DNA of 64,000 nt from Capitulum mitella (taxonomy: Eukaryota > Arthropoda > Thecostraca > Pollicipedomorpha > Pollicipedidae), in contig CP099846.1 in the NCBI GenBank assembly GCA_030062745.1, forward strand, positions 1,922,001 through 1,986,000, given 5' to 3'. Under the pieces are notes generated by a model. It saw nothing but the letters and a program-made list of their open reading frames with translations. It was not told the origin of the DNA and searched no databases. Shown here piece by piece: positions 1-52,100 of this stretch; the first letter of the stretch is position 1, and every line of letters begins with the position of its first letter. The translations under genes were made by a program, and so were the position numbers.

Positions 1-172
1 GAGGTGGATGGGGTGTTTACTATTTTTTGTGTGGAATGTGTCATATGTCACCTCATGTTGTGTGGAAGGAAACATCTTAAAAAAGTGTACATCTGATAAA
101 ATTTTTCACCATGGCTGTGTATGCTACAGGTTTCTTAGTTAAAACTACTTTCCAGGGTCAACAGTCAAGCAC

Positions 173-323
173 ATGCTCCTAAGTAAGAAGTTTCAAAGAT
201 TTCTGGAACTTTGGCCTGGAAAGAAGACATTTGGGATTTACAGATTCCTACCATTCTTTTTTGTTCTTGGAGCTGCTTTAGAATTCTCTATGATAAACTG
301 GCATGTTGGAGAGGTGAACTTCT
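173..323 (+). CDS. SMIM4/sloth1: Sloth1/SMIM4 coding exon 1
   Basis: This exon runs from ATG at 173 to the donor after 323 and ends in phase 1. It holds the conserved GIYRFLPFFFVLG core and the membrane segment. Its codons are AT-rich (for example TTT, ATT, AGA), unlike the GC-rich second exon. Confidence 0.9.
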
Positions 324-3300
324 GTAAGTAATGATACATCTACTTATATGATTAAGATGAGTAGTTTTATGCCACAGATTTGTGAGTAGTTTTATGCCTT
401 TTATGTGCTTGTCATTTCATTAGGAATGCATTGTCACTGTTCTGGAAAGGAGTTTCAGAATGGTGTTGTTAATCTCTGACAGCTTAAATGCCATTTGTTA
501 GTTGTGCAGTGTCAAGAACAGTAGCATTAACCCTTGCTAGATGTAAGGATTTCTGCATTTTCACCCAATATGGGGAATGGTTGTCCAACCCCTTTGCTCA
601 TTGTACTATTAACTGATGTCAAATGATGAAGTGGAAATGAATTTGTAGATTGGTTCTGATTCTAATGATGCCTGATTTGACCCCTACCTGGTGGCCTCTC
701 AAGTTGCTGTGAAAGACAGTATCATCCTGTTTGCTGTCTCCACTGTCATCTCAGTGGTTTTATAGCAAAAGGCCTGGAAACTATACTTTTATAGCAGGGT
801 GGTTTTGAAATATGAGCACTGCTTATATTCAGCAATTGTTTTGTATTTCCAGGTCAAGGTCACATCAGTGAGAGTTCAGATATCATCTTTCAGACTTCAG
901 CTAGTGCCAAAAACTGTGCTCTGTTACAGCAGAATAAAATTCTGATCACTAGGAGGGTTAAACGTAGTTGTCATACTAAAATCGGCCCCAAGAATTGCCA
1001 TAACACTGGTTCACATACATGTTGAGGTCATATAAGGCTATTGGCCCCACTTGACCTCAGAAATATTACTGACCCACCAGATCTCAGTGCTTTGTTAACC
1101 TTCTGCCGGCCAGGGGGCGGAAATCCGCCCCCCAGGTTTTCAAACGTAGCGAAAAACGGCGGCGTGTGGCGCCGCGAAACTTTGAACATCTTTTTCTTGC
1201 CCATTTGGAAAATTTGAGGCATCAGGCATATCAAGTCACCGACCGAGGTCCGTGTCAGGTCAGCCTTCAGAAAAATTGCAACCCTAATGGGTTTTTTTAG
1301 GGTTGGACAGCTTTGTATGAAGCTTGCGGGAGTAACAGAATGTAGTAAGCTTAACAACTTGTGTATTTCGGATTTTTCGGAAAATTCAATGTCAGTGACC
1401 TCAGGTGAAGTCACTTCTGGGCACATTGTGAGGTTTTGTTTAAATTTCAGGTTGTGTGGTTTTCATGCTCCAATATTGTCAAAAACATGGCCAGTGACAT
1501 ATGCTACCATCATATTACCACAACACGCGTGACCTTGGCTCAGGTCGTGACTCCCGATATTGGTATCCGTTGCCCTAAACATACGGTTTCCATAAAACCA
1601 AAGCTATGTACCCAGAAACAATAGGCTATTTTTCTAGGGTAGAAGCAGATGATAAATCAATTGCAGCGCAAAATTAACCCTATTCCCGCAGAGGGGGCTG
1701 AATCGGCCCCCCTCGGGTTTTTTTGCTTGCCAATTCCAGGCTTTTTAACGCAGCTTTACGAAACTTGGTGAATTTTCCTAGCTAGTTTTTCTACGCACCG
1801 TGACAAAATTTCAAAGTTCTATTTTGCTCAGGGGCGGAGCCAGGCTACGTTTTTGGGAGGCACCTCAGGCCGTTTTTGGCCATGTTGAGGGTGAAAGGAA
1901 AATGTCTGCCAAAAACAGAGTGTTTAAGATGGAACTTAAAACTTTATATGGATGTATAGCTAAATAGTTGGGCAATGTGTAGATATAATTTTGTTCATCT
2001 GAGGTCACTTTACAAGGTCAGGTCAAGGTTAAAATTCAAAATTTGTTTTTTTGCAATAATTGCGGCGCCGTTTTTTCAAATGCGAAAACCGGAATATATA
2101 TCACGTAGAACGGTGCCCTCTACCTGTGTGCCAAGTTTCAGCTTGATATCAGGTCGGGTCACGGAGCTATGACCTAAAATATCAGTGCGCATACCCTATA
2201 TTGCAATGGCCATAAAACGGAATTTTTGAAATAGAGTGAATTCAAATGATTGAAAATGTTTACAGATACTATTAAATGCACACAAGATCATTCCAAGTGA
2301 CTCCAAGGCCACTGGAGGTGATTTAAGGTCAAAGGCGACAAGTTGATCTGAAGAATGTGTGACCTTGACAGTTTCCCCCTTTTCATGTCCCTGGCACCGC
2401 CTATGCTAACATTTTACAAACATTGTGATGTGATTTGTATTTCTTTAGCATAACATGACTAGCAGAAGCCAAAAAAGTGTTATTGCATCTTTTGTTCATT
2501 CAGTTGTAAGAAAACTAATCCTCCTATTTTTGAAACCCTGTGAACACCCATGAATTTTCCCAAAATTTCAGATTTGTGTACCCATGGTAAAAGCCCTATC
2601 CATATTTTCTCGATTCATGCCAGTTTCACTGAAATCGGTCGATAAACAACGGTGTTATAAGAAGTTCAAAAATACCCCTGATTTTGACATTTTCGCCCCC
2701 CCCCCTGTATCCACGCATTTCAAAATTTTGAAAATTTCTTTTTATAAAAATGTAATTCACGTCATGGCAAATCGATTGCGGTTTGTTGCGATGAAATCGG
2801 ATGTGTAGTTCTCGAGATCTCAGGGGGGGCCGAATCCGCCCCCTCACCTGCTGGGAGTCGACCATACCGTCTAACCCTCCGGGAATAGGGTTAAGCCTGT
2901 TTAGGGTCACCAGAAGTCATCAGAGGTCAGTGGCCTCTGATGACCTCACTTGATCCGGGTTGGGCTATAGTGCAGTGACAAATGCTTATCAGGTGTTTAG
3001 TATGTTTCGTGCATCAACTGCAATCCAACTTGTGACCAAACCACTGGGTGAGTCAAAGCGTGATGATATATATATATATATATATATTCTTGTAAGGTGA
3101 AAACTACGTCAATTTTCCTTTTTATCCCACTTCCACTCCAGCTCAGTCTGACCTATCATGGCCTCCGATGACCTCAGTGTTGACCCAGGTTAAAAAAATG
3201 CGCTCATTCGACGTACTGTGATGAGTTCTTCATGGAGGTATTTCATTTTTTTTGTTTTATGTCACATCTCACATCATGCTGTGCGATGCACAGCACCTGA

Positions 3301-6300
3301 GATCCTGGGACCGGGGGTGGATACCCACCTCCCCTCCCCGGGCCGAGTGAAGTGCATTTTGAGGCCCGGCCGGGCGCAGCTTAAACTAAAAAATCTTATT
3401 CGGCGAGGCTTAACCCTCACTGGATTTTGAGGGATAGTTACCATCCCTCCCGACCCATTTTTTCAAGCCATCAGGCCATGCCATCATATTTCTGAGAAAT
3501 AAATTAAAATGTGGGTACCTGATGCAAGAATTTCTCTGGCAGTCTAAGAAAAAAACTTGTGTGCCAACTCCCCCTGTCTGCCGACGGCTAAGACGATAAA
3601 CCGTTATTTCTAGTTATGTAACGCGACTTTTGGGTTTATCATACTTCTAAGTTGAAGGCATGTAAAAGTGAAAAGCTATTTAAATGACTGTTCATCAAAT
3701 ACTTACATGAACTGACATGACTTTGATATGACAGAGTGAGAAAACATTGTTAATTAAGTTACAAGTCCTGAGGGCCGTAGACTGGGAAGTGCTTCAGAAT
3801 GCGTTTTTCGGGTGGCGTTTAAAAGGTGAAATATTTTGCAGCACAACGGCTTTTTTTTTAGAACATGCCAGTGTGGGTGAATTACAGGCACGTAGCCAGG
3901 ATTTCCCTCAGAATAAGGCCAAATGTCCAATTTTGTCATATGCCACTGGCATATAACAAAATTAGCGGGAAAGAGCAGCATTTTTATGTAACTGACATCG
4001 TATTTAACGCACGGGAAAAGCATATAATGTTTGTGTTTGCTCTTTATATGCATATACGATCGCTATTCCTTATTCTTGCGAGATCGCTAAATATCTAGTG
4101 TAGACCGCTTGGTTCAGGGTCGCATGGCTACGGGGGCCATGGGGGCATGGGCCCCATTGCCCCCTTGGGTACGTGCCCGGTGATTTCAAATATATATGGT
4201 GCATTCTCGCGGCCACCGCATCACCAAACAGACAATTCAACGCCCTCATCTCTCCGATTTTGACAAAAAGAGATTGATTGGGTCGTATTGGGTGCTCAGC
4301 TCGCCCGACGCAATTACACCACGATGAGAAAAAAAAACAGTTCACGAGTTACAGTCTGTGGTAATACCAGCCTTGTAGACGATTGAAATATTTTCTTAGG
4401 CCTGTAATAATAGAGGAATGTGCTAAACTCAGTCAATCCAGGCGCGAATCCAAGGGCGGCAATGTGGCGACCCGCCCAGGCCTGAGAAGGGGCCCAGTTT
4501 GAGGGTCACGGGGTCCATATGAAGACGTGACAGGTTCTTGATCCAGTCATGGGTGTCTGTGAGAGGGTTAGATGATCCCTGAGATTCATAGAGGGGCCCC
4601 TGGAGTTCCCAAAGGGCCCCTGAGACCACAACAGGGCCCCAACACTGCAGATTGCCCCTGAAACCGCCAGAAGCGTCACAGGGCCCCTGAGACAGCCAAG
4701 ATGAGGACTGAGTCCCTAGGACGGCATAGGGGCCTCTGGAATGGCATAGTGGCCCCGGATGGGTTTCACGGATCTGTGTGAAAAGCTGAAGGTTCCTGAT
4801 GCAGTCAGAGTATCAGACCTGATGAAAGTGAGGGGGCGGGGGTTAATGAGACCCTGAGATGGCAGGATAGTCCTTAAGATAGAAAAAAGGGCCCCTGATA
4901 CTCTGTAAGGGTCCCTGGGACCGCAGGAGGAGCTTCAGGACTGCATTGGGCCCATAACACCAATTAAAGATATTCAAGACCATAGAGGGGCCCCCATCGG
5001 CCTGTAGCAGACCCCCTGCCGGTTAGCGCCCCCTGCCAGTCTGTGAGGACCCTCTGCCAGCTTGTAAGGGTCCTCTGCCGGTCTGCATGGGCCCCCTGCC
5101 GGTCTGTAGGGGGGCATCCTGTCGGCCTTTGGGACCCTGCAGGCCTGTAGGGACCACCTGCCGGTCTGTAGGGACCACCTGCCGGTCTGTAGGGCTCCCT
5201 GCCGGCCTGTGCGCCCCTGCTGGCCTGTGGAGGGACCCCCTGCCGTTTTATGGGGCCTTGCCGGCCTGTAAAGGCCCCTGTCGGTCGGAAGAGGCCCCTG
5301 CTTGCCTGTAGCAGGCCCCCTGTCGGCATGAAGGGGCCCCTGCTGACATGCAGGAGCCTTTGCCGCCACCTGTAGGACCTCCTGCCGGCCTGTGGAGGGC
5401 TCGCTAACGACCTGTGGAGAGGCCCCCTGGCGTGTAGAGGAGCGCTGTCTGCAAAGGTACCTCTTGATAGCTGTGGAGGCCCCCAGTAAAAAATTGCTTC
5501 CGGCGCGATCGTCTACAGTCAGAGAGCAGCCAGCTGTTGCAACTGATGACGTTTGGGGACGGCAAGCGTCCAATGCCGTTAAATTTTTACTTGCAGTTTT
5601 TCTTCAGGGGGACCACACATAGGATACGGGCTCACCATTAATCACGCATCCCCGAAATTTTGGGCCGACTGTATCCCATTTCGAGTCTCTTGTGGAATGT
5701 CATGTTAATACTTTTGTTCAGGGAGGCCAGATGAAGTGAGGACGCCCATCACTGGGCGAGGACCCCCGAAATTTTGGCCGGCTGCGCCCCTGCCCCTGAT
5801 TGTGTTAGGCAGGCTCCTGGCACGGGAAAGGTCCCCCTGAGATTGCCAGCGAAGCCCCTGAAGCGCCAACAAAAGCCCCTGATACGGCTAAAGGGGTCTT
5901 CAGACTGCCAGATATACCATATGTAACAAAGGGGCTTGATACAGCCCTGGAGACTACCAGGGACGATGATAAGGCCCATGACACTGCACAGGGGCCCTGA
6001 AATCGCCAGGTCTTTTGTAACTGCGAGAGGGCCCTGAGACGGCAAAAGTTTCCCTCAGGGACGATAACAGAGGTACCAGGAGCACATGGAGTCCACTGAG
6101 ACTGTCAGAGAGGGGCCTTTGAGACTGCTAACTAGAAGTCTCTAGCGATAGAGGCCCTGAGACGACCAGAGGGGCCCCTGAAACTACCGAACCTTGAGAC
6201 GTCCATACAGCTCTTGAAAAGACCAAAGGGCTTAGATGATTGCCTGAGGCGCCTCTGTCACGGCAGAGAGACTGGTAGAGGACCCTTGTTACTGCCTGAG

Positions 6301-9300
6301 AGGCCTCTTGGATGGCGAAATTTTCCGAGGGACGACAGAAGGGGACCCGAGATAGCTTAAGTGTCCCTAAAGCTGCCAGATGGCTCCATGACACTGTCCG
6401 AGGTGTCCCTGCAGCTGCCAAAAGAGCGCCTGAGACGTCCCGAGGAACACGTGAAACTGTAAAAGGAACCGGGACCACAAGAGGGCCCTGACACGGCAGA
6501 CGGCCTGAGATCACCAAAAAGCTAGCCAAAAAGTCTCCAAAAGCTGCAAGAGGGCAGAGCTCCTGAACCAGATACAGGCACGACATTTGTAGAGCAGGAA
6601 GGGACGCAGCCGCCTAAAATCACGCCGTTGTCATATTCTGGGCAGTTGGTAGGGGAACAAAGCAACAAAACATTTCCTGAAATGAGGTCGCATTTGTTTT
6701 TTTTTCAGTTTCTTTAGATGGAAAAAATGCAAAATTACATCAAAGATTTTAGACTGGGTCCAAGTATATCAACGCTTTCCGTATGTAAAGAGCAAAAAAA
6801 GGATGTAAAAGCGCGGGCCCCCTCCTCTCTTGGCAAAATCCTGGATCCGACCCTTAATCAAGCTAAACGTTTCTAGGCTCACAAAGGAACATAAAATGCA
6901 ACTTAAAAAGGTAAATTTAGGATTAAATGACGTGATGATTGACGTCAGAGGTCTCGGCATGACGTTTGCCTTGTTTTCTGCAACATTTATTTGACAAAAA
7001 ATAAGTTGGCTAATTATCTTTGATAGCAAACGTGGAGTCTCGCGCGAAATCTGCAAGGGGAATCACCTAGGGGAAGTCTGCTTGCCGCACAAACGCCATC
7101 AGTTGGCAGAAACATTGATTTGATTGGATCTGACGGAACTTTGGGGAGGGGGCATTTGGGGTTAAAAGTGGACATGATCTGAATGCCTTGTTTGGACTTG
7201 ATTCCGTTTTTCGTTTCTTCTGCGTCCACTATTTTCAGTGCTCCCAGGTACTGGTTCAATGCAGGAGCGTAGGAACATCAAGAAAAGTGTGTGTGGGGGG
7301 GGGGGGCAGAGACGTTTTTTCCATAGGGATTATGTTACATTTTCCCAAAAGTGGGGGTCACGATCCCCCGCCCTTCTCCCCCGTTTCTACACCCATGGCT
7401 CAGTGTCCAAGAGGCGTGGTCAGATGTCTTTGAGGAAATGATGGTGCGGCAAAGTGGACGGCTGTTGCAAGGAAAAGTCTGATCAGTTCAGTTAACCATA
7501 TCCTGCAAGCCAAGGATTTTACGGAATTCTGCATAAAGGGTGCAAATCACCAAGAGTTTCATTTTCGTCCCAGAATCTGAACCTCCTTGTCACAGAATCA
7601 GACATCAGGCACGCCTGAAATGCTCTGTGCGTGATTCAAAACAGCCAAGCCCAATCGACGCACACGGAAATGTACCTGATGTACCGCGTGGAAACGCTCG
7701 TGGGTTACTCGCGCGTGGTCGGGAGTCGTCCTCACCTCGCCGAAGTGTTCTAGAACTTGTGTTTTATTGAGTCGCCGGCGGCTGGGGTGGTGAGTTAATT
7801 TAACACGCGCACTGGAAGGGGGATCTTTTTGTATCCCCCGCCTGTTTGGCAATTGAATAACTCGTCGATTGATGCGGAAAAATCGGAAATCGGCCAGAAA
7901 TTTTTGAAGCTCCAAGCATTTCAAGTCAGGCAAACATGACGAAAACGACGGTTGTCGCTGACAAATGGGAACTTTGTGAAGAAACTAGCGTTCTGCTTAA
8001 GACTACCGTTTGAACGCAATCAGACGATGTCATTCGGGCATAAATGATGGATGCACCAAGATCACAGCCAGATTCAATAAGAGTCAAGGTCATCAAAGGT
8101 CAAGGTCAAATAGCTTGTGACCGGATCCAGATTTGCTTTGCGACATGTCGGTTTGTATGAAATATGCATTCAAAGACCCTAATAAAAACACACATCGACC
8201 TAGGGTCATGAAAATTGCGCACAATGTAAATCGAGATCGGAGGGGGCACTTTTAGACCCCCCTTCCAGAGCACGTTAGTGCGAAACCCCCTTCCACGGCG
8301 CGGGTTAAGCGCAGTGAAAGGTAGACGCTCAGTCGCAGCTGTCATAGTCTGGATGCCAGATCGCGGACGGCAGTGTGTATTGCTGGCGAGAGGGATGTCG
8401 CAGCGGACAGATCTCTACGCGATGTAAGAGGCTGTTTTGACTTGTCAAACGCGAGTTGCGTTTTGCACACTTTCTTGCAATGTATACCCAAGAACCCGAA
8501 ACGAAATTTCAGTTTTGCGAGAATGTCTTAGCCTCGCTCGTCGTGCGCCTCACGTAATACGCCTTACTGGCTGTTATTGTTGAATGCTTTGTTCATTGTT
8601 GAACGCTTTGTTCAACATTTCCACGGTTGCCGTTCGACAAACTCTGAGGTTTACTGTGCCATGAAAAAGAAGGTACCTGAGGTTGCACATCGTAGCCATT
8701 GACAAAAGACTTAGGAGTGCTCAACAGAGAGGGGACAACAGGAAGGCGCAAGGACTGAAGCCGAAACTAAGCCTGCAGTTTCGGTCGTTCGAGTTTTACC
8801 CTAAATGCTCTCATGAGGCGTCAGGTCGACTCCATGAGTGCTTTTGCCAACACGTGGCGGTCTGAAAGATGGTAATACGGTGACAGGTAGACATCGTGGG
8901 ATTCTTTTTGTCAGGAAGTGTTTATATTATGCAAAGACAGTGAACCTTTAATGTGCTTTATGACGGAAAATGTTACGAACGGAGATTCGACGTAAGGCTT
9001 CGAGTATTTCTCTCACTAATACGGTCATAAGAACACCCCAGTTGTCGAAGTGCTGAGGTGTCGTCAGGTGTCAGCTCGTGACCCGTTTGTCTGATTGAGA
9101 TGAAGTTGTGCCAGACAAAGTCAGCTCTAAGAAGATTGTATTAGCCAAGTTTCAACAAAATCTGGGGGATTAGGGTGCCAGGCTTGTTGCGCTGGGTCGT
9201 ATAATATTGAAATCCGTCAAGATATCCTAGCTGTTTCATAAATGCATTTAATATCTCATGAATGGGCGATAATTGAACATGTGTTCTATGGTTTTCTGTT

Positions 9301-9675
9301 ACACGTGTAAAATATCTTGAATTGTTCTATTCTTGGTATGGTCTCCTGATCATATTGCCGCAAAATATCTAGCCACCAAAGGATATGTTGTCAGAACACT
9401 GCTTATACATCTGGTGCTTATAGCTTTATTGCTCATGTAAACCATTAACCTGTCTATCACTGAATGTCTGCATTCGACTCAAACTGCGCATGTCCGTACT
9501 GCTTTTATCATTGCATGCTGATTTCTCCGTTTTGAGCCCATATGGTTTCATCATTGCATGGAAAGTTCGTCGTCGCCGCCTGTTTTGCCGTGACCCGATT
9601 CCGTCCGTCCGGCCGGCAGATAAGACGTTCAAGCGTCGCGAGGCCCAGCGGGCGCTGGACCGGGCCGGCGGCTGA
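173..9675 (+). CDS. SMIM4/sloth1: Sloth1/SMIM4 (UQCC5) complex III assembly microprotein, two exons
   Basis: Join 173-323 and 9620-9675, giving 68 aa (human SMIM4 is about 70). Exon 1 encodes residues 1-50 and one base of codon 51. It contains the family core PGKKTFGIYRFLPFFFVLG (residues 15-33), followed by a hydrophobic segment to about residue 43, so the product is a single-pass membrane peptide with a short basic N-terminus. The donor is GTAAGTAA after 323. The acceptor is CCGGCAG before 9620. Phase 1 joins to form a Tyr codon, and the rest reads as a basic C-terminal helix (KTFKRREAQRALDR) ending in TGA at 9673-9675. Known for the family: the protein is in the mitochondrial inner membrane and is needed for assembly of respiratory complex III. 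The start at 173 has a weak Kozak context (C at -3). A 5' UTR acceptor (TTTCCAG, ending 155) suggests an upstream noncoding exon, probably outside the window. Identity is by recognition of the conserved core and exact phase. Confidence 0.9.
531..957. mobile_element. Candidate TTAA-flanked MITE (427 bp)
   Basis: TTAA at 527-530 and 958-961 flank a segment that starts CCCTTGCTAG and whose other end, read inward on the opposite strand, starts CCCTCCTAG. TTAA duplications with CCCT-first inverted termini are typical of piggyBac-type elements. The inverted repeat is short and imperfect and there is no coding capacity, so this is tentative. Confidence 0.4.
1678..2890. mobile_element. Non-autonomous piggyBac-type element (1.2 kb)
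   Basis: A TTAA target duplication (1674-1677 and 2891-2894) flanks perfect 11-bp terminal inverted repeats, CCCTATTCCCG. Both ends also carry an inverted subterminal copy of an AGGGGGC-GA-TCGGCCCCCC motif (about 1690-1713 and 2822-2842). There is no transposase ORF, so this would be a deletion derivative or MITE mobilised in trans. A second, unrelated element appears to be nested inside (1833-2409). A related subterminal motif near 1112-1136 suggests a second, incomplete copy. Confidence 0.65.
1833..2409. mobile_element. Nested MITE-like element
   Basis: The left end reads GGGGCGGAGCCAGGCTACG. The right end, on the opposite strand, reads TAGGCGGTGCCAGGGACATG. The shared GGCGG-GCCAGG pair looks like decayed terminal inverted repeats within the TTAA-flanked element. 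No ORF is present, and target duplications are not clear. Confidence 0.35.
3065..3088. repeat. (TA)n microsatellite
   Basis: A run of about 11 TA dinucleotides in the Sloth1 intron. Confidence 0.9.
3887..4177 (+). mobile_element. MITE-like element, copy 1
   Basis: The segment begins GGCACGTAGCCAGGATTT and ends TACGTGCC, giving inverted ends (GGCACGTA-CCA). An internal near-palindrome CATATGCCACTGGCATAT lies at about 3940. The same element occurs in opposite orientation at 58944-59212. They share the ends, the palindrome and a block containing TATCTAGTGTAGA. No coding capacity. Confidence 0.6.
4440..6575. repeat. Degenerate GC-rich tandem-repeat domain
   Basis: Units built on GGGCCCCTGAGAC followed by a variable spacer recur irregularly across about 2 kb. 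They are diverged and interrupted by unique sequence near 5470-5750. Long open frames here are by-products of the repeat. Confidence 0.6.
4990..5450. repeat. Minisatellite built on CCCCTGCCGGTCTGTAGGG
   Basis: Roughly twenty imperfect units of about 20-25 bp (core CTGCCGGYCTGTAGGG) lie in tandem inside the larger degenerate domain. Two adjacent units near 5147-5190 are identical. Confidence 0.75.
9620..9675 (+). CDS. SMIM4/sloth1: Sloth1/SMIM4 coding exon 2 (C-terminus and stop)
   Basis: Two bases complete the split Tyr codon, 17 further codons follow, then TGA. The upstream tract GATTCCGTCCGTCCGGCCGGCAG is pyrimidine-rich and serves as the acceptor. The same exon continues into the Sloth2 ORF after 11 nt. 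Confidence 0.88.
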
Positions 9676-9686
9676 GCGCCGCCGCC

Positions 9687-9896
9687 ATGCCCGCCGGCGT
9701 CACGTGGCCGGTGTACCTGCGCTTCACGGCGGCCGCGCTGCTGGCCATGTTCGCCGGCTCGCAGGCCGTCCACCTGGTGTACCGGCCCATGGACGACCTG
9801 CCGCGCTACATAGAGGAGGAGCGGCTGCGGCGACAGAGCGTGGCGGCCGACCCGCCGGCCGGCGCCGCCCAGCACGGCCCCAATGGGGCGAAGTAG
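9687..9896 (+). CDS. UQCC6/sloth2: Sloth2/Brawnin (C12orf73, UQCC6) microprotein, second cistron
   Basis: This is an intact single-exon ORF of 69 aa. It starts MPAGV, followed by YL, AA-LLAM-AG, VH and YRP in the same order as human C12orf73/Brawnin. One hydrophobic helix lies at about residues 9-31, then a charged tail (IEEERLRR, residues 42-49) and an Ala/Pro/Gly-rich C-terminus. The family sits in the inner mitochondrial membrane and is required for complex III assembly. The ATG is in a near-ideal Kozak context (GCCGCCATGC) and begins 11 nt after the Sloth1 stop in the same exon, so both proteins are expected from one mRNA. No promoter between them is possible within 11 nt, although an intronic promoter upstream of 9620 could make Sloth2 alone. 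Stop TAG at 9894-9896. Confidence is high because N-terminal residues and gene order both agree. Confidence 0.9.
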   Translation: MPAGVTWPVYLRFTAAALLAMFAGSQAVHLVYRPMDDLPRYIEEERLRRQSVAADPPAGAAQHGPNGAK

Positions 9897-11515
9897 TGAG
9901 CACGCCCGGAGGCGAACGGCCGCGCAGGAGCCGGTGCGGTGCCGTGAATGGATGTACGTTGTGCATTTTGTGGGAGGGAGAACGCCGTGTACTGTTTGTT
10001 GTGAAATGCAGCCTTCTGAGTGACATTACGCGTTTATTGGGATGCGATGATGAGGCGTTCGTGCTCTACGTTTCGAAAGGAGTCAGAGCTAGTTTTTGCA
10101 AGCTGTAATGAATGCAAACAAGGAATGATAGTATCGATGACATTGCGATGCAAACAAACACTGAACTACGGATGGTTTCGGAATGGGGAAGCGACGTTGG
10201 TTGTGGCCGTTCATGAATTGCACCACATGACGGATGAAACACAGCGAGGTCTGGTGGTCGACTAGCTTTGTTCAGTGAGGGCCACCCGGGATCGCCTGTG
10301 AGCCGGCCGGTCAGTCACGTGACCGGGCGCCCCGGGGCACAGCCCGGCGACCGCCGCCGAGCGGCCACGGCGATTCAGTGTCGCAACGGATACTTGGCCG
10401 ATCCAACCACAGACGAAATGGGTGTATCGTGGAAAGGTGGCCTTACGGGTCCTTAAGAAGTGCGCCCTGCTCGTGGCAAGAGCAGGCACCGCCGAGGAGG
10501 CGTCCGTTACCGTGCTACCGTTTAGTGAGGTCGTTAGGACTTATCTGCCCCGTTTGGACCATCGCCCATCGCCTTGCCATTTTTGTAATGTTTGAGCGTG
10601 TGTCAATGGTACAGCAGAAACGTACCATCGTAGAGACCAGAGTAGCATTCAAGCTTTTATCACACAGCATTTTTAACTTCCAAACGGCAGCGAGCGATTA
10701 CGTACATTTTAGATCTCTTTTGCGGAGGGATAATGTAGCCGGTGAGCACGATGTATTTATATATGGCGGGTCACGAGCACATTCTTCATATAAGCATGCT
10801 CCGATTACAGAACCCACGCAAACAATCATGCGATGCAAAAATTTATGCGGCGGTTTTAACACGTACTGAATTGCCCTCCGTCTACAGCTCAATAATTTAC
10901 CATATAATATTGATACAATGCACAACGCAAACTTATAACAACACAATTCTGGAAAATATACGTTTTGTGTAGAAATATAATCTTCGCACTATAAATCAAA
11001 ACAACCTGGGCGTCATTCAGGCGCCTCCACAACCTTCCAGAATAAAGGCGCCCAAATCTCAGTGGAAATCTCCGACACACCACCGGACCGGCACGCGCTT
11101 TTCACGCCATAAACGGCATTGTGCGGAACTTGAAGAAATCAACGCCAGTCGCGTACAGGCATGTTTCAGGCATTTTCAACGTCTCGCGGGAGGGCCGAAC
11201 GTCCGGAGAACGAGAATAAACGATTTCAATGTGCAGTTGGCGGATACACAAACTCGCGCCACAAACTTGTCATCTCTGCCTGGTGCCGCGTAGCGCAACG
11301 GCCCAGCAAGCTGCGACAGCTCGAACACCCCGCGCCCGCACATTTGTACAGAAACGTCCGAAAGGCACGCGCAAACACGGTCCCCGCTGTCCCGAGCCCA
11401 CATTATGCAGCAAACCTCAGCAATCGTCATCTGCAAGACGACCAGCCGCCCCAAAATGGTCCCCGAGCCCCCCCCCCCCCCGCCCCGAGACGACTGCCGG
11501 CGCCGTTCGCGGGCA
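9897..11515. other. Convergent intergenic region between Sloth1/2 and GMPPB
   Basis: The 3' ends of the plus-strand Sloth unit and the minus-strand GMPPB gene face each other here. A possible plus-strand AATAAA lies at 11041-11046 and a minus-strand AATAAA at 10030-10035, so the two 3' UTRs may overlap. The segment 10570-11000 is AT-rich. No additional gene is recognised. Confidence 0.55.
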
Positions 11516-22100: not shown

Positions 22101-25100
22101 GAGAAAAACACGGATTGCCTTGAATTCCCTGGTCTGGCGCATTAGCAAGGACGCGCCTACAGCCCGGCCTGTGGGACGGACCAGGCCCCTCCGTCAGTGC
22201 AGTCGCTCTCTCCGCTACCGCAGCCGTCGTCTGACTGCGGCTTCTCCCGGTCTCGCTCCGCGCTCTGCCCGTGGTCTCCAGGCAGCGAGTTCAGGATGTG
22301 AGTCACTCGGTCGGTAGCGCCTCCCGCAGCCGTTTGGACTCTGTCGTCCTCTTTTCTCTGAGCTCACGTTTTCTCCCTGACTGAGGTGAAACGTCCCGTG
22401 CGGCCAGCCGTTCATACAAAGACGCGTCTTGTCTCCTCCACGTCACGAGCGCAGGCTTCTGGTACTCCAGCAACGGCATTAGGGCACTTCAGCGCCGGCA
22501 TATCGCGTAAAAAAACACACGAAAAAACCGATTGTTTGAAAGGTCAGGTTTGGGACCCGCCAACTGTTCAGAGCCTCTGCTATGGGGCTGGCGCCTCGGC
22601 TCGGCTCGGCTCGGCTCGGCTCGGTTCAGGTCGTTTCTGTCCGGTGTCCGGCGGTCCCAGTTCGGAGGCTTTGCTGCGATTGTGGCGGCTCAGCCCCGGC
22701 CGGGCTCGTTCCGAACTGTCTCCGTCCGCGGTCCGGCTGTCCGGCTTTGATGCGACCGCCCGGCCCAGTGTCCCTGTCCCAGTCCAGTCGTCTTTCCTGG
22801 AGGCGATTGGAGCCGGCGCCGAGGAATGTAGCAGGCGCGCATTGTTGAGCGCCTGCCAGGGGCCACGGCCGCGCCGCCGCCGCCGCCGCCGGCTCGCTCC
22901 GGGTCTGGGTCATCCTGGCCAGTGCCAGCCGAAGTGTCAGCGGCGGCGCGCTCCAGCCGTCGCAGACCGCACCCTGGTCCCCGCCGACGGTCCGGAACCT
23001 GGTCTCCTTCAGGAGACCTGCTCTCGAGTTTTGAGCTCCGTGTGCGTGTTTGGGGGGGGGGGGAGATTTTGGTCCCTCGCGAAGGAAGGAGTTCCCTGTC
23101 CCCTCGCAGACAGATGAGGCCCGTGTGTGCCACGGATGGCTGGGCCTGTGAGGTTCAGAGATTAAGCGTTGCTTTGTGCTGGGGAAGAGTGGAGGCCGGG
23201 CCCTGTGTTTGGCAGGGAAGGAAGCGCATCAAGCGGTGGACGTGGACGGTCCCCGGTCCCCGGTCTCCGCGGCTGCCGCGTTGTCCTTTTTTTATAGTAC
23301 CCGCTGTGCGTGGATGCCGGTGGGCGAGTCTTTTGCCGGGATCGCCGGGTTAGCTAAAGAGATGCACGAGGCCAGTTGTGCGCGATGCCTGAGACGGTGT
23401 CTGAAGAGATCCCGAGGCTACTTAGAATGCTACGAGAGGGAGGAACATGCAGTATTCTGCTTTCAGTCCGTGGAGACCGAGCCCAGTAAGCTACCGTCGC
23501 CGGAGTGCAGCATGAACACCACAAATGCACCGCAGGCTTAGGATGTCCGCCCGATCGCCGAAAAGACGAAACAGTCAGCGAACACAACGGACTGCGTTAC
23601 GGCGCTTTCGCCAAATTTGACTCCATTTCGTAGTCAGCCTGCTGGCGTCGTTGGAGAGCGAGGTCGAGGCCCGGTCGCGTCCCGGTTGTCCACTCCAGCC
23701 CGTGCCGACCGTGACGGCGCCAGCTGAGAGACATTTAACGGCGTGCGGGTCGGGTGGGAGGAGGCGGGGGCTGCGCCAAATCTGATTCCTTGCGTGCAGC
23801 TGGCCGGCTGGTCTGGTGCTAGTTACCGATGTAGCGAGCCTCACCTCCGGTAAGGGTCATTCCCATCGGACTGGAGGACGACGGCATATCGGCACGAGAA
23901 ACATGCCTGTCCGGGGCTTTAGAGTCAGGCCAGTACCCGATTGGCTACAGAGGATCGCTATGGGCCCCGGAAATATAGCACGATTAGAAATGTGCGACGA
24001 GGCTCGTCACCTCAGCAGAGGCTTGCGGAGACGGTAAACAATGACAGCAAGGAAACAGCCAAAATATTATCGCGAACAATGTCGAGCTGCGGACGGTTTC
24101 ACTGCCGCCTCAGCGGTTTCGGCCTCTGGAGAGGCGCCTCCGCTCAATTCGGTGTCGTGTGACCTCGGCACGGATCCTCGGATATGGTGGCGGCCTCTGT
24201 GGCAACGGGCGGCCATCTGCCGAGACATCTACCGCGCTGCGATGCACGCGAGCCGGTCGGCCGATGGAGCGGCGCCGTGTCGCTAATCCGGCCGTCCGCC
24301 CACCGACCAGGAGACCAAGGTCAGCACGTGCCGGTTGCGGCGCCGGCCGTATCTGACTGGCGCTGAGCTCCCGCTGGGCGGTCACAGGTGGGGATGGACG
24401 GAGACTGAACGGTTTGAGAATATACTGGCAGCGACTGCATTGTCAGAGACTGCACTGTCAGATACTGGAACTGGACTGTCAGAGATTGGACTGTCAGAGA
24501 CTGTGGTGTCAGAAACTGGGCCGTCATTGATTGGATGGCCAGATAGTGGTTTGTCAGAGACTGTACTGTCAGAGACATGACTGGAGTTGTCAGAGACAGT
24601 GAGTTGGCTGACGGAACCTGAATGGCCAGAGATAAGGTGGGGAGAGACTGACTAGCTGGAGACAGTACAGTCCGAGATTGGCTGGTCAGAGACTGGACGA
24701 TCATAGACTGGATGACAAGCTCCCGGGCCGTGCACTGCCGCTCCGATGTCTCCGGACTGTGGCAGAAATCCACCGAAGGCCATCGCAAAGAGAGCGGCAC
24801 ACGTGACGCGGCGAGGCCGGCCGGCACCGTTCGTGCGGTGCGGATTTAGACTCCTTCCGTGCCGCGCGATCTGGGCAGTGCTGTTTGCGGGTGTCGGCCT
24901 CAGGATTGTTTCCAGAGGTCCCGCGGACCGCTCGGGCCGGCCGGCCGCCGGCCGTGTGACCTGACCGGTCGCCAGCGCGCTGGAGCCGTGTCGCGCCCTG
25001 TTTTACGATATTTTTAGCCGCGGTCGGCGGCGGTCCCCGTTGGCTCGGCGGGACCGCCGCTCTGCCAAGAGCAGCCGCTCGGCGGCCGGACCGCTGCCAG

Positions 25101-28100
25101 CCCTCTCGCCTTCGACCGGCGCCGGCCGCCGTCCGTCCGTCCGTCCGTCCGTCCGTCCGTCCGTCCGTCCGTCCGTCCGTCCGTCCGTCCGTCCGTCCGT
25201 CCGTCCGTCCGTCCGTCCGCCCGCCCGCCCGCCCGCCCGTCCGTCCGTCCGTCCGTCCGTCCGTCCGCCCGTCCGTCCGTCCGCCCGTCCGTCCGTCCGT
25301 CCGTCCGTCCGTCCGTCCGTCCGTCCGTCCGTCCGTCCGTCCGTCCGTCCGTCCGTCCGTCCGTCCGTCCGTCTGACCGGCCCGTGTGTAGGCGGCCGCG
25401 GCCGTACCGGGGGAGCAAAACACCTCGCGAAATCTGCTGCCCTGGATTGCAGTGCACACCGGCCACTATTTACCGGCACGGTTGACGACGAGGCCGTGAT
25501 TCGAAAAACTTGGCTGTAGGTGAGGCGGTCCGATCCATTGGCCTGGGTATTTCTTTGGTGGGTAAAACGATCCGATGCACTAGTCTCCGTAAGCAATTGT
25601 TTGACGCTCTACTAGCTCCTTATTTTCCAGATCACCATGATTAATGGCACATCGCTACTGTCGTTATCGTTTGCACCCGTACGTGCAATCTGACACCCGT
25701 AGGCTCGTTATTTCGTGACTGTTGCAGTCAGGAGTGAGAGGGCTTCGTGATAATGTTGCCCTCGTATCACAATGTTATGGCCTTGAAGTGTTGACGTTGC
25801 CCCATTCAGCTACCAATAACGACCTCGATTTATCTTAATATGGGTAGTTCTGGCATTCAGGAACAGCCGGGTGTGATTGTCTTCTTCGATTAAGCCATGT
25901 TGGTGAAAACCGAACTCATGAACTCTCGGAAAACTCGGTCTGCATTTTTTTTTGTCGACTTGCGGTCGGCGATATAGCCGGTTCTCGCGTCTCAAAACGG
26001 GCGTATTTCTCCCGCACCCCGGACGGCTCGTTTCCGACGTGCCCCGTCACCATCAGTTCTGTCTGCCTCAGCCTGGGGTGACCTCAGTCCCGTCGCGTCC
26101 CGGCGTCCCACCGCAGCGATCCTCACCCCGGCCCCACCGACGAGGACCCACCCCCCACCGACTCTGCCCTCCGCGGGCCCACGTCCACACCGCGGTCACG
26201 AGACGGTATTCACGAGGAGAAGCACGGGCCAGACCGCGCCCCTGCTCCCCGCGGTGGCCCGTGCTGACGTCACTCGCCGCGTGACGGGCGGTTTGGTACC
26301 TGCGGTCATACAAATGTCGCGGCGGCGGCATGTCGGGCGGCGGGCGCGCCGCGGGGCCTTACGGTGCCGGCGAGAAAGTACCGCCAGCCGGCCGGGGCGG
26401 CCTCTGTAGCGGACTGGGTCTCGTCGGCATCAGTCACACTAGAAAACTGCTAAATAAGCTCGCTGCGGGGCGGGGAAAGCGGCGCTGGCTCGCGCCGCGT
26501 CGGAACGGAGGGGGGGGGGAACGGAAACATGGGCCGGCGCGTGAAATGAGTGCGGACCTGGCTGTGCCGACTGGCAGTGCCACTACTCCCGTCCTGAAGG
26601 CGCGCCGCTGTACCGGCAAGACGGGAACATTGTGACTGACGGTCCTCACTGGGCGGCTGTGGCCCGCGCTGAAAGACCGGGCTGATGGCGAGATGTGGAG
26701 CTCAGCTGGCCCCCCGTAAACGGGGCCGGGAACCCCTGTCCGCCTGCCCCCGCTCGGTGGTCAGGGCGGCGGGGAAGGTCGGCGGCCGGGGTCAGCGACC
26801 CTGACGGCTGGAGCTCGAAGAAGCCTCTGGTGGTTCGCTGACCCAGATAGAAACCCGCCGACCGTTCGTAAACTCAAGACTGCATCCGGCGAAAACGCGA
26901 CAACGAACGGCGGCGGGGCGAAGTGCTCTATTCTGCCGTCAGATCGACATGGAAGGGAAATTTTTCCTCCAGCTGAATGCGGGAACGGACTCATCTGTTA
27001 ACACCAGATGGCAGCAGGTATTAAAAGGTAACAGCAGGCGGCTCATCCCCATCCTTGGCGGGCGGGCAAACATCGGACAGTCCCGCTACGGCGACGCCAA
27101 CAGCGGTCGACCAAACCGACCAGAGCACGGTGAGGCGCGTGCCAGTCCACCGAGAACGACGTGGGCAGCGGTCCCAGGTGTTTTTTTGCAGTGTTTGCGA
27201 ACGACAAGACGTCCGCGTTACCCGATCGGTCCGGTCCGGTCCGGTCCGGCGGCGACACTGAACCGGACGGTTTCCGGCCAGTCCCCAGCCCAGTCCAGCT
27301 CAGCCACAAACGAGGCTTTCGTCGCCGGACGGGACTTTCGTGTGGGCAGCGGCCGGCCGATGGAATGAAAGCGCCGGGGGCCGGGCCGTCGGCGGCGGCG
27401 GCGGCCGGAGAAACCAGCGCTCGCCGTCGCGGCCGGCGGCAGACGGTGCGCGGCGGTCGCCCCTGCCGGCCCTGTCGCCGGTCGCCGTCGGCTCGGCTCT
27501 CTGCGGTGCGCGCTGGCGAGCGGCTCTCGGTCTGAGTCAGCCCACCTGTTCCCCGATCGGCGACCGCGCCGCCCGCTTCGGCCGCGTCAGCGTCACCGGC
27601 GGCGCCGTGATTCAGCCGTCCGTCAGCGGCGATAGCGCCGCGCCGGCGGCCGTCGCGGCGCGTGCCGGCGTTAATCTGCCGCTGGCGGCCTCACCTGATG
27701 GTCGCGCCGCCGCTGTGTCGCCGCTCCGCCGCCGCTGTGCCGTGCCGCGCCGTCCGCTGCCGGTGGCTGACTGAGCGCCGTGCCGGCGCCTCCACGCATC
27801 CTCCGCCCGCGGTGAAAGGCCTGCTCGGCCCCGGGCTCCGCCGGCGTCTCCTCGGCCGGCCCCAGGTGAGCCGATCGGGTTGAGGTGAGGGGGGGGGGCA
27901 GTGAAGGACGCCGCCCCCTGACGTGGCGGTCAGCGGCTGCCGTCTGCCGCCGCTCGGTGCAGGCTCCGATCCGGCCGCGGCGGCGCCGGCTGGCCGGCCG
28001 CTGCCCGGGAGAGCGGTGCTCTAAGCTGCCCGCCGGTCCCCGCCCGGCGTCGTGTCGGTCGCGGCGGCCGTCAGTGCCGGCAGTCCGTTCCGGTCAGATC

Positions 28101-31100: not shown

Positions 31101-34100
31101 CTCTTATCCTCGTTAAGCGCAGTCGCTGCAGTCAAAACCCTTACTTTCCGGTCCCTAACAAAGGTGCGACTCAAACCCATGTCCTAGTCTCATGGCTTCG
31201 AAATGATCAAGACTGTCTGAAGAGGCCCATCCTCCTGACCAACCAAGTAACCGCGGAACAATAAAAGTGCTTCCCGGTATTGGGGGGGGGGGGGATTAAG
31301 GTACGAATGTCGGCTCCCCGTACCGTTATGACTAGGCTGGTGGTTTCCCGTCCTGTAGATTCTGCTGCCTGGCGGGGCGGGGCCTGCACCTGGTCCCTGT
31401 CTGAGGCGGGCATGGCTTGTGTCAGGACTGGGGCCGTTGTCAGTGACTGATACCAGTGGCCCGGCGTCATTGGCGCCGTCATCGGCGCCGTCACCACCGA
31501 CGGCCATCCCTGGCCGGTGGCGTCGGCGGTACTGGAGCACGGGCCCTCCTGTGCCGCTGTCGGTGCGTTTCGTTTGACGCTGACGCACGTTGGAGCGGCC
31601 GAAGTCCGGTCCACTTGACGACAGGAGATTGTCTCATGGGCTCTGTTGGTCGTAGCAGGTCCTGGCTCCCGGGCCGGGTTTGTGAGTTTGTCCGCGTTGG
31701 CCGAGCCGACTGGAGCACTTTCTTAGTTACTGTAGACCCTCGTCTTGTTCATCATCCAAACCAGCAATCGATCTGATGGCCTGCTATGTTGTAGACATGG
31801 TTTTCAGTGAGACCAAGTCTTGCCACAAGGCACCAGATATCAGGGGACCACGCGTGGCTGCTTAGCATAACTCACCGGATCAACCAGATCAGATTGCACA
31901 GAGCACCCTGGCATGTTGCAAGTTGCAGAATTCCCCGTGGGGTTACGCAAAACAGGCTGGTTTGGACGACTGCACCCGTCTGGAGCTAGGACTGATGTGT
32001 GGTGGGCATCTGGAGCTTTTGGTGATTGCATACATGTTGGTTTGCCCAACGGCAGATACAGAATTGAAGACATGGACGGGATTTCACGCAAAGGCAAATC
32101 TTGTCTTTCGTAATTCTGTACTCTTGCTGTCGCCACCTTGATCAGATTGATACATGGTCGATTTGTCCATGTCTGTCTCCTGGCGCCCTTATAAGCCTGG
32201 TGTATTTTTTTGTAATATTGGTAACGATGCCGAAAATCAACTACGGACCCTTTGCAGTCGAGGAACTATTCTTGTACCGGTGTATTGCGAATATTAATTG
32301 TTAGGGATCAGGAGATTTTAGAAGCCTCATGCATTCAGCGATTGAATAGCAAGGAACGTTCTGTACTCCCTCGTAGCGCCAGATTGGTCCATGCGTCGAG
32401 GAGTAGTTATGAGCAGTGAGATGCACCAGCTGCCGAAACCGGTCAACTGCTCTTGCGCACTTGCACGGAAGTAGGGCTGGTCTGTTTTTGAAGGGGTAGG
32501 GGGAATGGGGAAAAAGTATTCGTCTTTAAGAAAGGATTTTGCAGGATGTATTGCAAACACATATTTTTTTATATTGTCGCCTTTATTTTGGATAGACAAT
32601 AAAGCAAATAGTTGAAACTTACACAAAGCTAGACAAGAGACAAAAAGCAGTTTCCCTTGATAGAGGAGCCTTTTTGTCTCCTGCCTCTTGGCTACACTTT
32701 TGCGCATGTGCCTCTTCAGTCAGCTGCCTTCCTCGGAATGAATTCTGGGAAAAAACACACCGTAGGAAATATGTTGATTATTCTTTTGAATGAGCCGCGA
32801 GACATCACCTGCCTTCGCGCCACCGTCTGGCAAATAGATATCCATAGGCTTAGGAAAGTTTGTGAGGGTGTAAGCTATTTTAACACCCTACCTGTCTTGG
32901 GATGTTTTTGATGGAAAGGACTACCGTCTCTGATGTTTCCCTGCGGTCCGGCCGCCGCTGACCCAGGTCTGCCCCAGTGTCGGACCGCCGCTGACCCAGA
33001 CCTGCCCCAGTGTCGGACCGCCGCTGACCCAGGTCTGCCCCAGTGTCGGGCCGCCGCTGACCCAGGCCTGCCCCAGTGTCGGATCGCCGCTGACCCAGGT
33101 CTGCCCCAGTGTCGGACCGCCGCTGACCCAGGTCTGCCCCAGTGTCGGACCGCCGCTGACCCAGGTCTGCCCCAGTGTCGGACCGCCGCTGACCCAGGCC
33201 TGCCCCAGTGTCGGGCCGCCGCTGACCCACGTCTGCCCCAGTGTCGGACCGCCGCTGACCCTGGTCTGCCCCAGTGTCGGGCCGCCGCTGACCCGTTCCG
33301 TCCGTGTTCCAGCTCGGGAGAGGCGCCCGGCAGCGGTGCGGAGCTCGAGTTCCGGCCGGCCCGCAGCATCAGCCAGGAGCTGGTCCGCCCGGCCAGCGTC
33401 ACCGAGCGCTGGACTGACTCGCTGCGCAAGTCCCGCGACAGACTGCGCCAGCGGCTCTCGCTGCGCGACGGCCGACGCACGCCGAGCGAGCCGCCGGAAC
33501 CGAGCGAACAGAGCGAGCCGGCCGAGCCGCCGGAGGCCGAGCCGAGCGGGCCGGGCGGCGGCAGCCCGCGCCAGAGTCGCCGCGATGCGGCGCGCCGCGC
33601 CGACGCCCTCCTGCAGCCGGTGCGCCGCTTTGGCCGCGTAGCCAGCCGCAGCGCCGTCGGCAAGCCGGTGGTGCGCTTCGCCAAGACGTGCCGGCGCGAC
33701 GTGCCGAAGCCGTACCGGTTCCTGCGCGACAAGCTGCGTTCGCGGAGCCCGGCGGAGCGCCGGCCGCGCTCCGACAGCCCGCGCCCCCGCTCGCTCTCGC
33801 CGCCCAACGGCAGCAGCAACAACGACGACGAGATCGTGTTCGCATTCGGCGCCGCCAAGGAGCCCGAGGAGCACATCTACGACCCGGTCGGCGAGCCCGT
33901 CGGCGCCGACCAGTCGACCGGCGCCGCGGCCGCCGGCGCCGACGCGGCGGGCGCGTCCGGAGACGAGTTCGCGCGGTTTTCGCGCCTCAGCAACGCGCCG
34001 ACCGCGCGGGAGGCGGCCGGAAAGCGGCCCGCTAAGCCGGAGCCGGCCGCTAAGCCGCAGAAGGGCGAGCCGGTAGCGGCCGGGCCGCCTGTCGAGGAGC

Positions 34101-49100: not shown

Positions 49101-52100
49101 AGAGGAAGCTGCGCTGATCTTACATACCGAATCAGCACACAACCGTAGCAAACGATTACTCCAAGGCAGTGTCTCGGTAGGATATCTAGGGCAGTTCCCA
49201 CTACAGTTTTGCATCTTCCTGCACCGCCTTGAGTATCGTGAAGGGGCTACCCTCTCAAGAGGGCCACGCTTTCCAAGTCATGACACGGCAAAATTGGTAT
49301 TTTATGGTCTGAGATATTTAATAGAACTATTTTCATTTTTACTTTTTACTGTACCCATTATATGATATTTAATTATATTTATATAGTTACAGAATGTGGT
49401 TCGCTCCATAATGTGACGTTTTATGACGTCAGTGACCTGTTAACGTTCACCTGTGCAGTCTGTCCGAGTATGCGGACTATTCCCCCCCCCACATTTTCGC
49501 ATTTTCCGACAGCGGTCGGTGTTAAAACCCCCTTCCAACGCGTTAAAACAAGGACGCGAGTGTATAGACTAGCCGGTTTGGCAGGCAGAGGCGTCGCTAT
49601 ACGTCGGGCCTCGGGCCTACATGCGCCTCTGTGTGCTGGGCCTCCTATGACGGCCCGACAGCATGGTCAGCTGCTCTGCCGACAGCGGCTGGCTGCATGT
49701 GGTCCGGACGTTTGACTGCCTTCCGGCCGGGCCCTGCACGTGGTCTCGTGGTCCGCGGGCTAGTCTGAGTCACCGGCCTGAGTCACGGTCTCACGCGCCG
49801 TCTCCGGGCGGGCCCGGTCGGTGTGTGTAGCCGAGCCGCGGGCCGCCGGGCCGCCGGCCGCCGCATCTGGCGCCCGCTCGGCGTCCGCTGTCGTCGGCCG
49901 CTGGGTCGGCCCGGTCCGGTGGGTCTGTCCCCCGGCTGTCCGGGCCGAGGGCCTGTCCGAGACGGGTCACACTGACCGCGGCCTGCCGGCGCCGTCAGCT
50001 CAGACCCGGTCGGGCCCTCCGACCCTGTGGGCGCCGCGCTCCTGTCGTGCCGCTGGCCGTCTGGACGGGACCTTGCTGTCACGGCTGCGGCCGTATCGTC
50101 GGCCGTTTTCGGGACGCAGCGCTGCCGTCGGGCCGCGCGCGGCGCCAAGGGTCGGGCGTCTTTCCGCCGCGGCCGGTCGGAACGGCCGCGGGACGTAGGC
50201 CGTGCCCCGCTGCCCCGTCAGGGCCCCGGCTGGTCCCGCGGAGGGCGTTGAGATGGCGGTCCCAGCCGGTCTACCACGCTCACGCAGCTCCCATACTGCA
50301 GCTGCGCAGTCCGCGGTGTGAAATTGACAGCTCGTGCGCGCGGCCAGGATCTTGCCGGGGAGGGGGGCTAGCCAAGGACCTTTTGTTTTAGTTATGCCCA
50401 CATCCGAATTTTTCGTGCGTGCAGAATTTCTCGAGGGGAAAGTAATCTGGAACAGCATGTTCGTAGAGTCAGCAGTCTCTTGCTTTCCGCCTCTAATGGA
50501 GGGCATTGTCCTCTGTACGTTCCCTTTGCCCTTCTAACCTCTACCCGTTGCCCTTCTGACCTGTAGTTTTGTTGTTACATTCACTGGTTACTGGGTGGGA
50601 TGCTCCGTGGCTTCGCCGCGCTGGGGCCTGGTGCGGCCGCCGGTGGGCGGGGCCTGGAGGGAGACATCGTGTGCCGTCGGCCTGGTCAGCGACCAATGAC
50701 GTCACACGCCGGGCAGTCATCGACGGCCGAAAACGTCTATCGGCAGGCGGCTGAAATCATGAAATCTTAGCAATAAAAATAAAAGAAGCCGGGCTTTTGT
50801 CTGTGTTCTTCAACAATTTCTTAAGACTATTATCGTTTTCTCCCTCGGACGTCCAAGTGCACGGGACCCAGGGCGAAGTGGGCACTTTGTTCACGGTTGG
50901 TCATACACACAATCCTTTGGTGTCGAGTCTGCTTACGCCTTTCTGGCTGTCAGGGAAATAAGATCACTGAGGAAAGTTATGGCGTTCTTCCAGAATTATG
51001 GTCTCCGGGCATGCAGCTCGTTTATCTCTTGTTTCCTTCCCTCGGTGGAGTGAATTACGCAGTACTTTCACACACTATTCCAGGATTAGATAATTGGAGT
51101 TTAATTGTTCTTGTTTTAGTATATGATGACGACTAACTATATAAACTTCAGGAAACGTTATTTTTTATGGTAAAATTAGGGTTTCGTGGTAGCTACATGT
51201 GAATTGCAAATGACATGTCGAAAAAGGGACAAATGGTAATCCCTTTGGTGTCCTGTTGAGCCTGTCATATGGACATGTTCTCCCTGCTTCGTTTTGCGGC
51301 CTTCATGCATGTATTAGTTGATGACTGTTTTCAGTCATTTTTTTGTTGCGTCGCGTTTTTTTGACACGTTGCGTCATCAAACTGCCGATCGATTATATCT
51401 ACGCCCCTCTTAGGCGAATCGCATCATGACAGCAAAAGGCAAACAGAACCTTCTGCTGTCAGATCCGGACCCTGTGATACGGAGCGCTGTCCCGACGTCG
51501 GCCGGCCAGGCGCAATAAATCCTCCGAGCCCGGCACGTGTCACAACACAATGGAAAGCCTCGTGGGAACGACCGGGAATGATTCCGCGCACCGTCGGGTC
51601 GGGCCGGCCGGCTCTGCGCCGGTTTTGCCTGCCGGCCGGCGGCCGCCGCGCCGTCATTATCTGCGGATTTGTCGGCCGCGTCTCCGGCCCGACCGGCACC
51701 GGCCGGTGACGCCATCTGCCCCGGCCGCCGGTGGCGCCGCCTGCGCCGTCGGCCGATCAATGCGGGCGAAATCGACCAGCTGGCGGCGGCGGCTGCCGCC
51801 GCCCGGCCGGCCGGCCGGTCCTCCCGCGTGATCTCGAAGGCCGGTGTTTTCGGCGCAGGTGGTAGGACACCTCTTGCCGGGCGTGTAAGCTGACCAGCCG
51901 CTGCGGGCGGGCGGCCGGCCGGCGGCGCGCCGTGGCGGCCGCGGCGCCGGCCAGGCGCCTTCCGCGGCTCGTTAGCGGCGCGTCCGGCCGCCGGCGCGTC
52001 GGCGCTCATTAAGGCGTGGCGGCGGCGGCGGCCGGCCCCGCTCGGCCGGGTCGTCTGTCGCCGCCGCCGCCGCGCCTCGCCCGACTGCTGCCGCCCGCCG

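What the first reader, a model, noticed from the sequence alone, without database searches (positions are those of the whole stretch)
9620..9896. Two complex III assembly microproteins encoded head-to-tail on one mRNA (Sloth1/SMIM4 then Sloth2/Brawnin)
One exon carries the Sloth1 C-terminus, its stop, 11 nt, then a full Sloth2 ORF. In humans the two are separate genes (SMIM4 and C12orf73). In Drosophila the orthologous pair, sloth1 and sloth2, is reported as bicistronic and needed for complex III. Finding the same linkage here, with different ORF lengths and a long intron, suggests an ancestral eukaryotic operon-like unit kept so that both subunits are made together. Both ORFs are below usual gene-calling limits and would be missed.
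Basis: partly seen in the sequence, partly recalled or inferred. Interest (0 to 1): 0.9.

Follow-up and report, generated by a model that had tools for sequence, protein, structure and literature searches.

The report
Linked sloth1 and sloth2 microprotein genes
One gene in an animal genome appears to encode two tiny, presumably mitochondrial proteins back to back on a single messenger RNA, an arrangement already published for the fruit fly and a few other organisms, so this is a good extra example rather than a new phenomenon.

Summary
Window 173-323 spliced to 9620-9675 gives a 68-aa protein matching Pfam PF15114 (8.1e-33); 11 nt after its TGA, in another frame, a 69-aa ORF (9687-9896) matches PF14990 (5.2e-19). 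That these families are SMIM4/Sloth1 and C12orf73/Sloth2 is recalled. Sloth1's stop and sloth2's start share one exon, so a message with complete sloth1 also carries the sloth2 start. The linkage is not a new idea: Bosch et al. 2022 (PMC9681215) reported it for Drosophila, a choanoflagellate, a sea squirt and lamprey, with unlinked genes in jawed vertebrates, and gave reporter evidence for leaky scanning. Start contexts here fit that (weak at sloth1, stronger at sloth2), but this is one locus in GC-rich sequence. The genome's size and 16 contigs resemble the barnacle Capitulum mitella, without matching either published assembly exactly; no marker gene was tested. No RNA data, no relatives and no genome-wide family count could be obtained. 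New member of a known kind; modest interest.

The parts
173..323 (+). sloth1 (SMIM4-like) coding exon 1: 50 codons plus the first base of a split Tyr codon; the 5' limit of the exon is unknown
   Evidence: Translation; PF15114 E 3e-25 on its own; donor GTAAGT at 324
324..9619 (+). intron of 9,296 nt inside sloth1 (GT...AG, phase 1), containing a GC-rich minisatellite at about 5028-5344
   Evidence: Boundaries from sequence and frame continuity; repeats. Inferred, not seen in RNA
9620..9675 (+). sloth1 coding exon 2: end of the split Tyr codon, 17 full codons, stop TGA 9673-9675
   Evidence: Adds 24.3 bits to the PF15114 match
9676..9686 (+). 11-nt intercistronic spacer GCGCCGCCGCC, which is also the start context of sloth2
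9687..9896 (+). sloth2 (C12orf73/Brawnin-like) complete ORF, 69 aa plus TAG, in a frame other than that of sloth1
   Evidence: Translation; PF14990 E 5.2e-19
303..317 (+). out-of-frame 4-codon minORF (MLER) inside sloth1 exon 1, G at -3; possible start-stop site for ribosomes that pass the sloth1 AUG
   Evidence: function inferred only, and one such ATG is about what uniform synonymous randomisation gives (mean 1.07 in 5000 draws)

Best explanation
This is the sloth1-sloth2 locus: one pre-mRNA whose mature form carries both ORFs. Sloth1 is read first from a weak start (GCAC-ATG-C). Ribosomes that pass it scan on and start sloth2, 218 nt downstream in the spliced message, in a stronger context (GCCGCC-ATG-C). 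Both products are single-span inner-membrane mitochondrial microproteins that together support early assembly of respiratory complex III. Shown here: the two ORFs, their families, order, spacing and start contexts. Inferred from Drosophila and human work: the common transcript, leaky scanning, the mitochondrial location and the complex III role. The confidence given is for one shared message that makes both proteins; for leaky scanning as the main route to sloth2 I would say about 0.75.
For: PF15114 and PF14990 matches; the same exon holds the sloth1 stop and the sloth2 start, 11 nt apart; consensus donor, AG acceptor and a frame-keeping split codon. One hydrophobic 17-residue stretch in each (Kyte-Doolittle maximum 1.96 at residues 25-41 of sloth1, 1.61 at 15-31 of sloth2) and net charge +7 for sloth1. 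Start contexts ordered weak then strong as in Drosophila (ACACATG and CAAAATG, 5-nt spacer), with the same CAC at -3 to -1 of sloth1; in the fly, reporter assays supported leaky scanning. Human SMIM4 and C12ORF73 depend on each other and act with newly made cytochrome b, UQCC1 and UQCC2.
Against: No transcript or ribosome data. The GCC-rich sloth2 context may simply follow from the 75% G+C of exon 2, and this animal's own start consensus is unknown. An out-of-frame ATG with G at -3 (position 303) lies between the two starts, which pure leaky scanning must pass or restart after. An ATG at 111 in a strong context opens a 23-codon frame that overlaps the sloth1 start; if it is in the mRNA it would depress sloth1. 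I assumed that the exon starts after it (possible acceptor AG at 154-155), which is a guess. The two proteins show no detectable similarity to each other, unlike the 27% reported for the fly pair.
Confidence: 0.88

Rival explanations
1. Sloth2 is made mainly from its own, shorter transcript that starts in the 3' part of the intron, so the unit is not truly bicistronic in use.
For: Exon 2 lies in an abruptly GC-rich, CpG-rich stretch (G+C 0.425 in 8801-9600 and 0.636 in 9601-10400; CpG observed/expected 1.19 in 9400-10400 against 0.68 in 324-9300), as an internal start region might.
Against: The whole window is CpG-rich (1.02), so the contrast is weak. In Drosophila a single transcript was predicted and the full-length one was found as a cDNA clone and by RT-PCR. 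No promoter evidence was found here, but the only scan run was for bacterial-type promoters and says nothing.
Confidence: 0.08
2. Both ORFs share a message, but sloth2 is translated by re-initiation, either after sloth1 itself or after the 4-codon minORF at 303-317, rather than by simple leaky scanning.
For: The minORF has G at -3 and ends, counting from the coordinates, 73 nt before the sloth2 ATG in the spliced message, a distance at which re-initiation after a very short ORF is possible (recalled general knowledge).
Against: Re-initiation 11 nt after a 68-codon ORF is expected to be poor (recalled). One out-of-frame ATG is about what uniform random synonymous codons give (observed 1, mean 1.07), so it need not be functional. 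Drosophila reporters favoured leaky scanning.
Confidence: 0.15
3. One or both ORFs are decayed copies or chance ORFs and not working genes.
For: No relative could be fetched to measure purifying selection (not run; searches found none).
Against: Both frames are intact and cover nearly all of their profiles, and the sloth1 exons are joined by consensus splice sites.
Confidence: 0.02

Closest known systems
Drosophila melanogaster sloth1-sloth2 (CG32736-CG42308), Bosch et al. 2022, PMC9681215
   Same: Same two protein families, same order, different frames, short spacer, weaker start on the first and stronger on the second
   Different: Spacer 5 nt in fly, 11 nt here; proteins 79 and 61 aa in fly, 68 and 69 aa here; 9.3-kb intron inside sloth1 here (fly introns not checked)
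Linked sloth1/sloth2 orthologues of a choanoflagellate, a sea squirt and lamprey (same paper)
   Same: Reported as a similar bicistronic architecture; the figure legend says candidate bicistronic or adjacent transcripts
   Different: Other lineages; their sequences are in a supplement that could not be read here, so they were not compared
Human SMIM4 and C12orf73/Brawnin (UQCC5 and UQCC6, names recalled)
   Same: Presumed same protein families and complex III assembly role
   Different: Separate genes on chromosomes 3 and 12

Membership tests
SMIM4/Sloth1 (Pfam PF15114, UPF0640; the link of name and accession is recalled) | Profile match above gathering score over most of its length | tested here: met
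   112.6 bits against a cut-off of 27, profile positions 3-64 of 67
SMIM4/Sloth1 (Pfam PF15114, UPF0640; the link of name and accession is recalled) | Single membrane-spanning segment in a protein below 100 aa | tested here: met
   68 aa, best hydrophobic stretch at 25-41; by hydropathy only
C12orf73/Brawnin/Sloth2 (Pfam PF14990, DUF4516; the link of name and accession is recalled) | Profile match above gathering score over most of its length | tested here: met
   68.1 bits against a cut-off of 27, profile positions 1-45 of 46
C12orf73/Brawnin/Sloth2 (Pfam PF14990, DUF4516; the link of name and accession is recalled) | N-terminal membrane-spanning segment | tested here: met
   69 aa, best hydrophobic stretch at 15-31, weaker (1.61); by hydropathy only
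sloth1-sloth2 bicistronic gene | Sloth1 stop and sloth2 start in one exon with a very short spacer | tested here: met
   11 nt
sloth1-sloth2 bicistronic gene | Suboptimal sloth1 start and optimal sloth2 start | tested here: inconclusive
   C at -3 and C at +4 for sloth1; G at -3 and C at +4 for sloth2 after GCCGCC. In the expected direction, but one locus in GC-rich sequence and the species' own consensus is unknown
sloth1-sloth2 bicistronic gene | One transcript with both ORFs translated | not testable with these tools
   No RNA or ribosome profiling data
sloth1-sloth2 bicistronic gene | The two proteins resemble each other (27% identity reported in fly) | tested here: not met
   BLASTP finds no local alignment at E up to 100. 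The gene arrangement does not depend on it, and pairwise BLASTP is weak on such short proteins
sloth1-sloth2 bicistronic gene | Complex III assembly role | not testable with these tools
   Inferred from fly and human work

The most novel reading that the evidence does not exclude
The pair is an ancestral animal operon-like unit that stayed one dosage-locked message through the ancient whole-genome duplication reported for barnacles, with a 4-codon minORF inside sloth1 acting as a relay that passes ribosomes on to sloth2.
Probability: 0.07. Interest if true: 0.5.

Novelty: new member of a known kind. Interest (0 to 1): 0.25.

Why it matters
It adds what may be a crustacean to the organisms in which the two complex III assembly microproteins share one message, which fits the published view that the linkage is old and was lost on the way to jawed vertebrates. 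It gives a concrete gene model with a long intron inside the first ORF, useful for annotation. It does not change the picture.

Tried and rejected
Protein homologue searches for both ORFs were not run because the shared database is switched off. Scans of viral contigs with each protein and of prokaryote genome contigs with sloth1 (sloth2 was not tried there) confirmed no relative, which is unremarkable for a eukaryote gene. The PDB sequence search gave one match at chance level for sloth1 (Cox5c, E 0.47) and none for sloth2 at E up to 1. Similarity between sloth1 and sloth2 was not detectable.

The own-genome DNA search with 9620-9896 found itself and two short matches (56.3 bits each; 87% over query 207-260 and 81% over query 199-262; L002 and L003). 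tblastn of both proteins against those loci gave one match to L002 at E 8.2 and none to L003 at E up to 10, so they are not further copies. A telomere-repeat check on six stretches (five contig starts and one contig end) was uninformative: one stretch is mostly N and the longest TTAGG run is 3 units (a first version of the script stopped at its second file).

Of the 101 stop-to-stop ORFs of at least 150 aa in the window I gave 20 to Pfam: one (32912-38500) has a domain above its cut-off, RhoGEF. Two further matches lie below their cut-offs (Trypan_PARP in the same ORF, 23.7 of 100 bits; Yae1_N in 24704-25465, 19.9 of 27.5 bits). The bacterial-type promoter scan is not meaningful for this genome. 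Two passage look-ups failed on a term that was too short and were repeated with longer terms (then 44, 45). A structure prediction was considered and not run.

Full report
Observation. The window carries what the finding describes. Reading 173-323 joined to 9620-9675 gives an intact 68-residue ORF, with a consensus donor (GTAAGT at 324), an AG acceptor (9618-9619) and a codon split across the junction. Eleven bases after its TGA, a 69-residue ORF runs from 9687 to 9896 in another frame. Pfam places the first in PF15114 (UPF0640, 8.1e-33) and the second in PF14990 (DUF4516, 5.2e-19), both well above the curated cut-off of 27 bits. That PF15114 is the SMIM4 family and PF14990 the C12orf73/Brawnin family is recalled; the Pfam output names them only UPF0640 and DUF4516. 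Exon 1 alone scores 88.3 bits and the spliced protein 112.6, so the C-terminal exon across a 9,296-nt intron is supported by homology. Without splicing the frame ends after two more residues, Cys and Lys.

What follows from the anatomy. The sloth1 stop and the sloth2 start lie in one exon, so a mature mRNA with complete sloth1 also contains the sloth2 start unless it ends within a few bases. No AATAAA or ATTAAA lies between 9620 and the sloth2 stop; the next AATAAA after it is at 11041. A separate sloth2-only transcript from an internal start is not excluded.

How it probably works. In Drosophila the same two ORFs, 5 nt apart and in different frames, are on one transcript; sloth1 has a weak start (ACACATG), sloth2 an optimal one (CAAAATG), and reporter changes fit leaky scanning (Bosch et al. 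2022, PMC9681215; I read its sections 5 and 11, its abstract and further passages). Here sloth1 has C at -3 and C at +4, with the same CAC before its ATG as the fly, and sloth2 has GCCGCC before its ATG, G at -3. This is in the same direction, but it is one locus in sequence of 75% G+C, so the sloth2 context could be compositional. Between the two starts in the spliced message lie one in-frame ATG (290) and one out-of-frame ATG (303) that opens a 4-codon ORF. Uniform random synonymous codons give a mean of 1.07 out-of-frame ATGs against 1 seen (5000 draws, 72% at or below the observed value), so there is no sign of ATG depletion, which leaky scanning might have favoured, and no need to give the minORF a role. 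That script took the exon to start at 156, which is an assumption. Upstream, an ATG at 111 in a strong context opens a 23-codon frame overlapping the sloth1 start. Whether it is in the mRNA is unknown; a possible acceptor at 154-155 would exclude it.

Function. In human cells SMIM4 and C12ORF73 are inner-membrane proteins with their C-termini in the intermembrane space; each depends on the other, and together with UQCC1 and UQCC2 they act early in complex III assembly (Dennerlein et al. 2021, PMC8719881, passages including part of the abstract). [quoted passage not shown] Each protein here has one hydrophobic stretch of suitable length. The function is inferred by family.

Which organism. The window lies at 1,922,001-1,986,000 of contig 8 of a 477-Mb genome in 16 contigs; C1 is 45.52 Mb, C8 30.86 Mb and C16 18.35 Mb. 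One assembly of the stalked barnacle Capitulum mitella has 16 chromosomes, the longest 45.43 Mb and the shortest 19.66 Mb, from an initial assembly of 463 Mb (PMC8416341, passages); another has 512 Mb and a scaffold N50 of 30.73 Mb (PMC11331182, passages). Neither fits exactly, Pollicipes pollicipes is also drawn with 16 chromosomes there, and no marker gene was tested, so a barnacle is likely but not shown. The second paper reports an ancient whole-genome duplication in barnacles, so a second sloth locus is possible. The DNA search found none but would miss an old duplicate, and the family searches of the genome did not complete.

Novelty. The arrangement is published for Drosophila, a choanoflagellate, a sea squirt and lamprey, with the hypothesis of an ancient duplicated pair that became unlinked towards jawed vertebrates. 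I made ten searches of the open-access library, nine of them on this gene pair and on the barnacle genome. In their listings I saw no report of the pair in a crustacean; one search listed 12 of 23 papers, the one that named crustaceans and barnacles with the gene names, 15 of 637, so this is not an exhaustive statement, and annotation databases could not be queried. A review (PMC11475943, passages) repeats the fly result; PMC13303939 (passages) only cites the Brawnin paper. So this is a new member of a known kind. BLASTP did not reproduce the reported faint similarity of the two proteins to each other, which says little for such short sequences.

I mended the wording on papers, lowered the start-context row of the membership test from met to inconclusive, added the below-cut-off Pfam matches and the mismatches with the barnacle assemblies, and said what the 0.88 refers to. 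The odds themselves are unchanged.

Noticed in passing
window 32912-38503 (+): Open frame of 1,863 aa with a RhoGEF domain near its C-terminus (PF00621, 2.3e-32); long frames are open on the other strand too.
   Followed up: partly
window 5028-5344: GC-rich minisatellite (units of about 21, 41 and 62 bases) inside the sloth1 intron.
   Followed up: no
window 52093-52181 (+): ARAGORN reports a tRNA-Asn (gtt) of 89 bases; Rfam gave no match in the window at its gathering scores.
   Followed up: no
window 111-182 (+): ATG in a strong context opening a 23-codon frame that overlaps the sloth1 start; whether it lies in the mRNA is unknown.
   Followed up: partly
window 8801-10400: Sharp rise of G+C (0.425 to 0.636) at the boundary between the intron and exon 2; exon 1 is 38% and exon 2 75% G+C.
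   Followed up: partly
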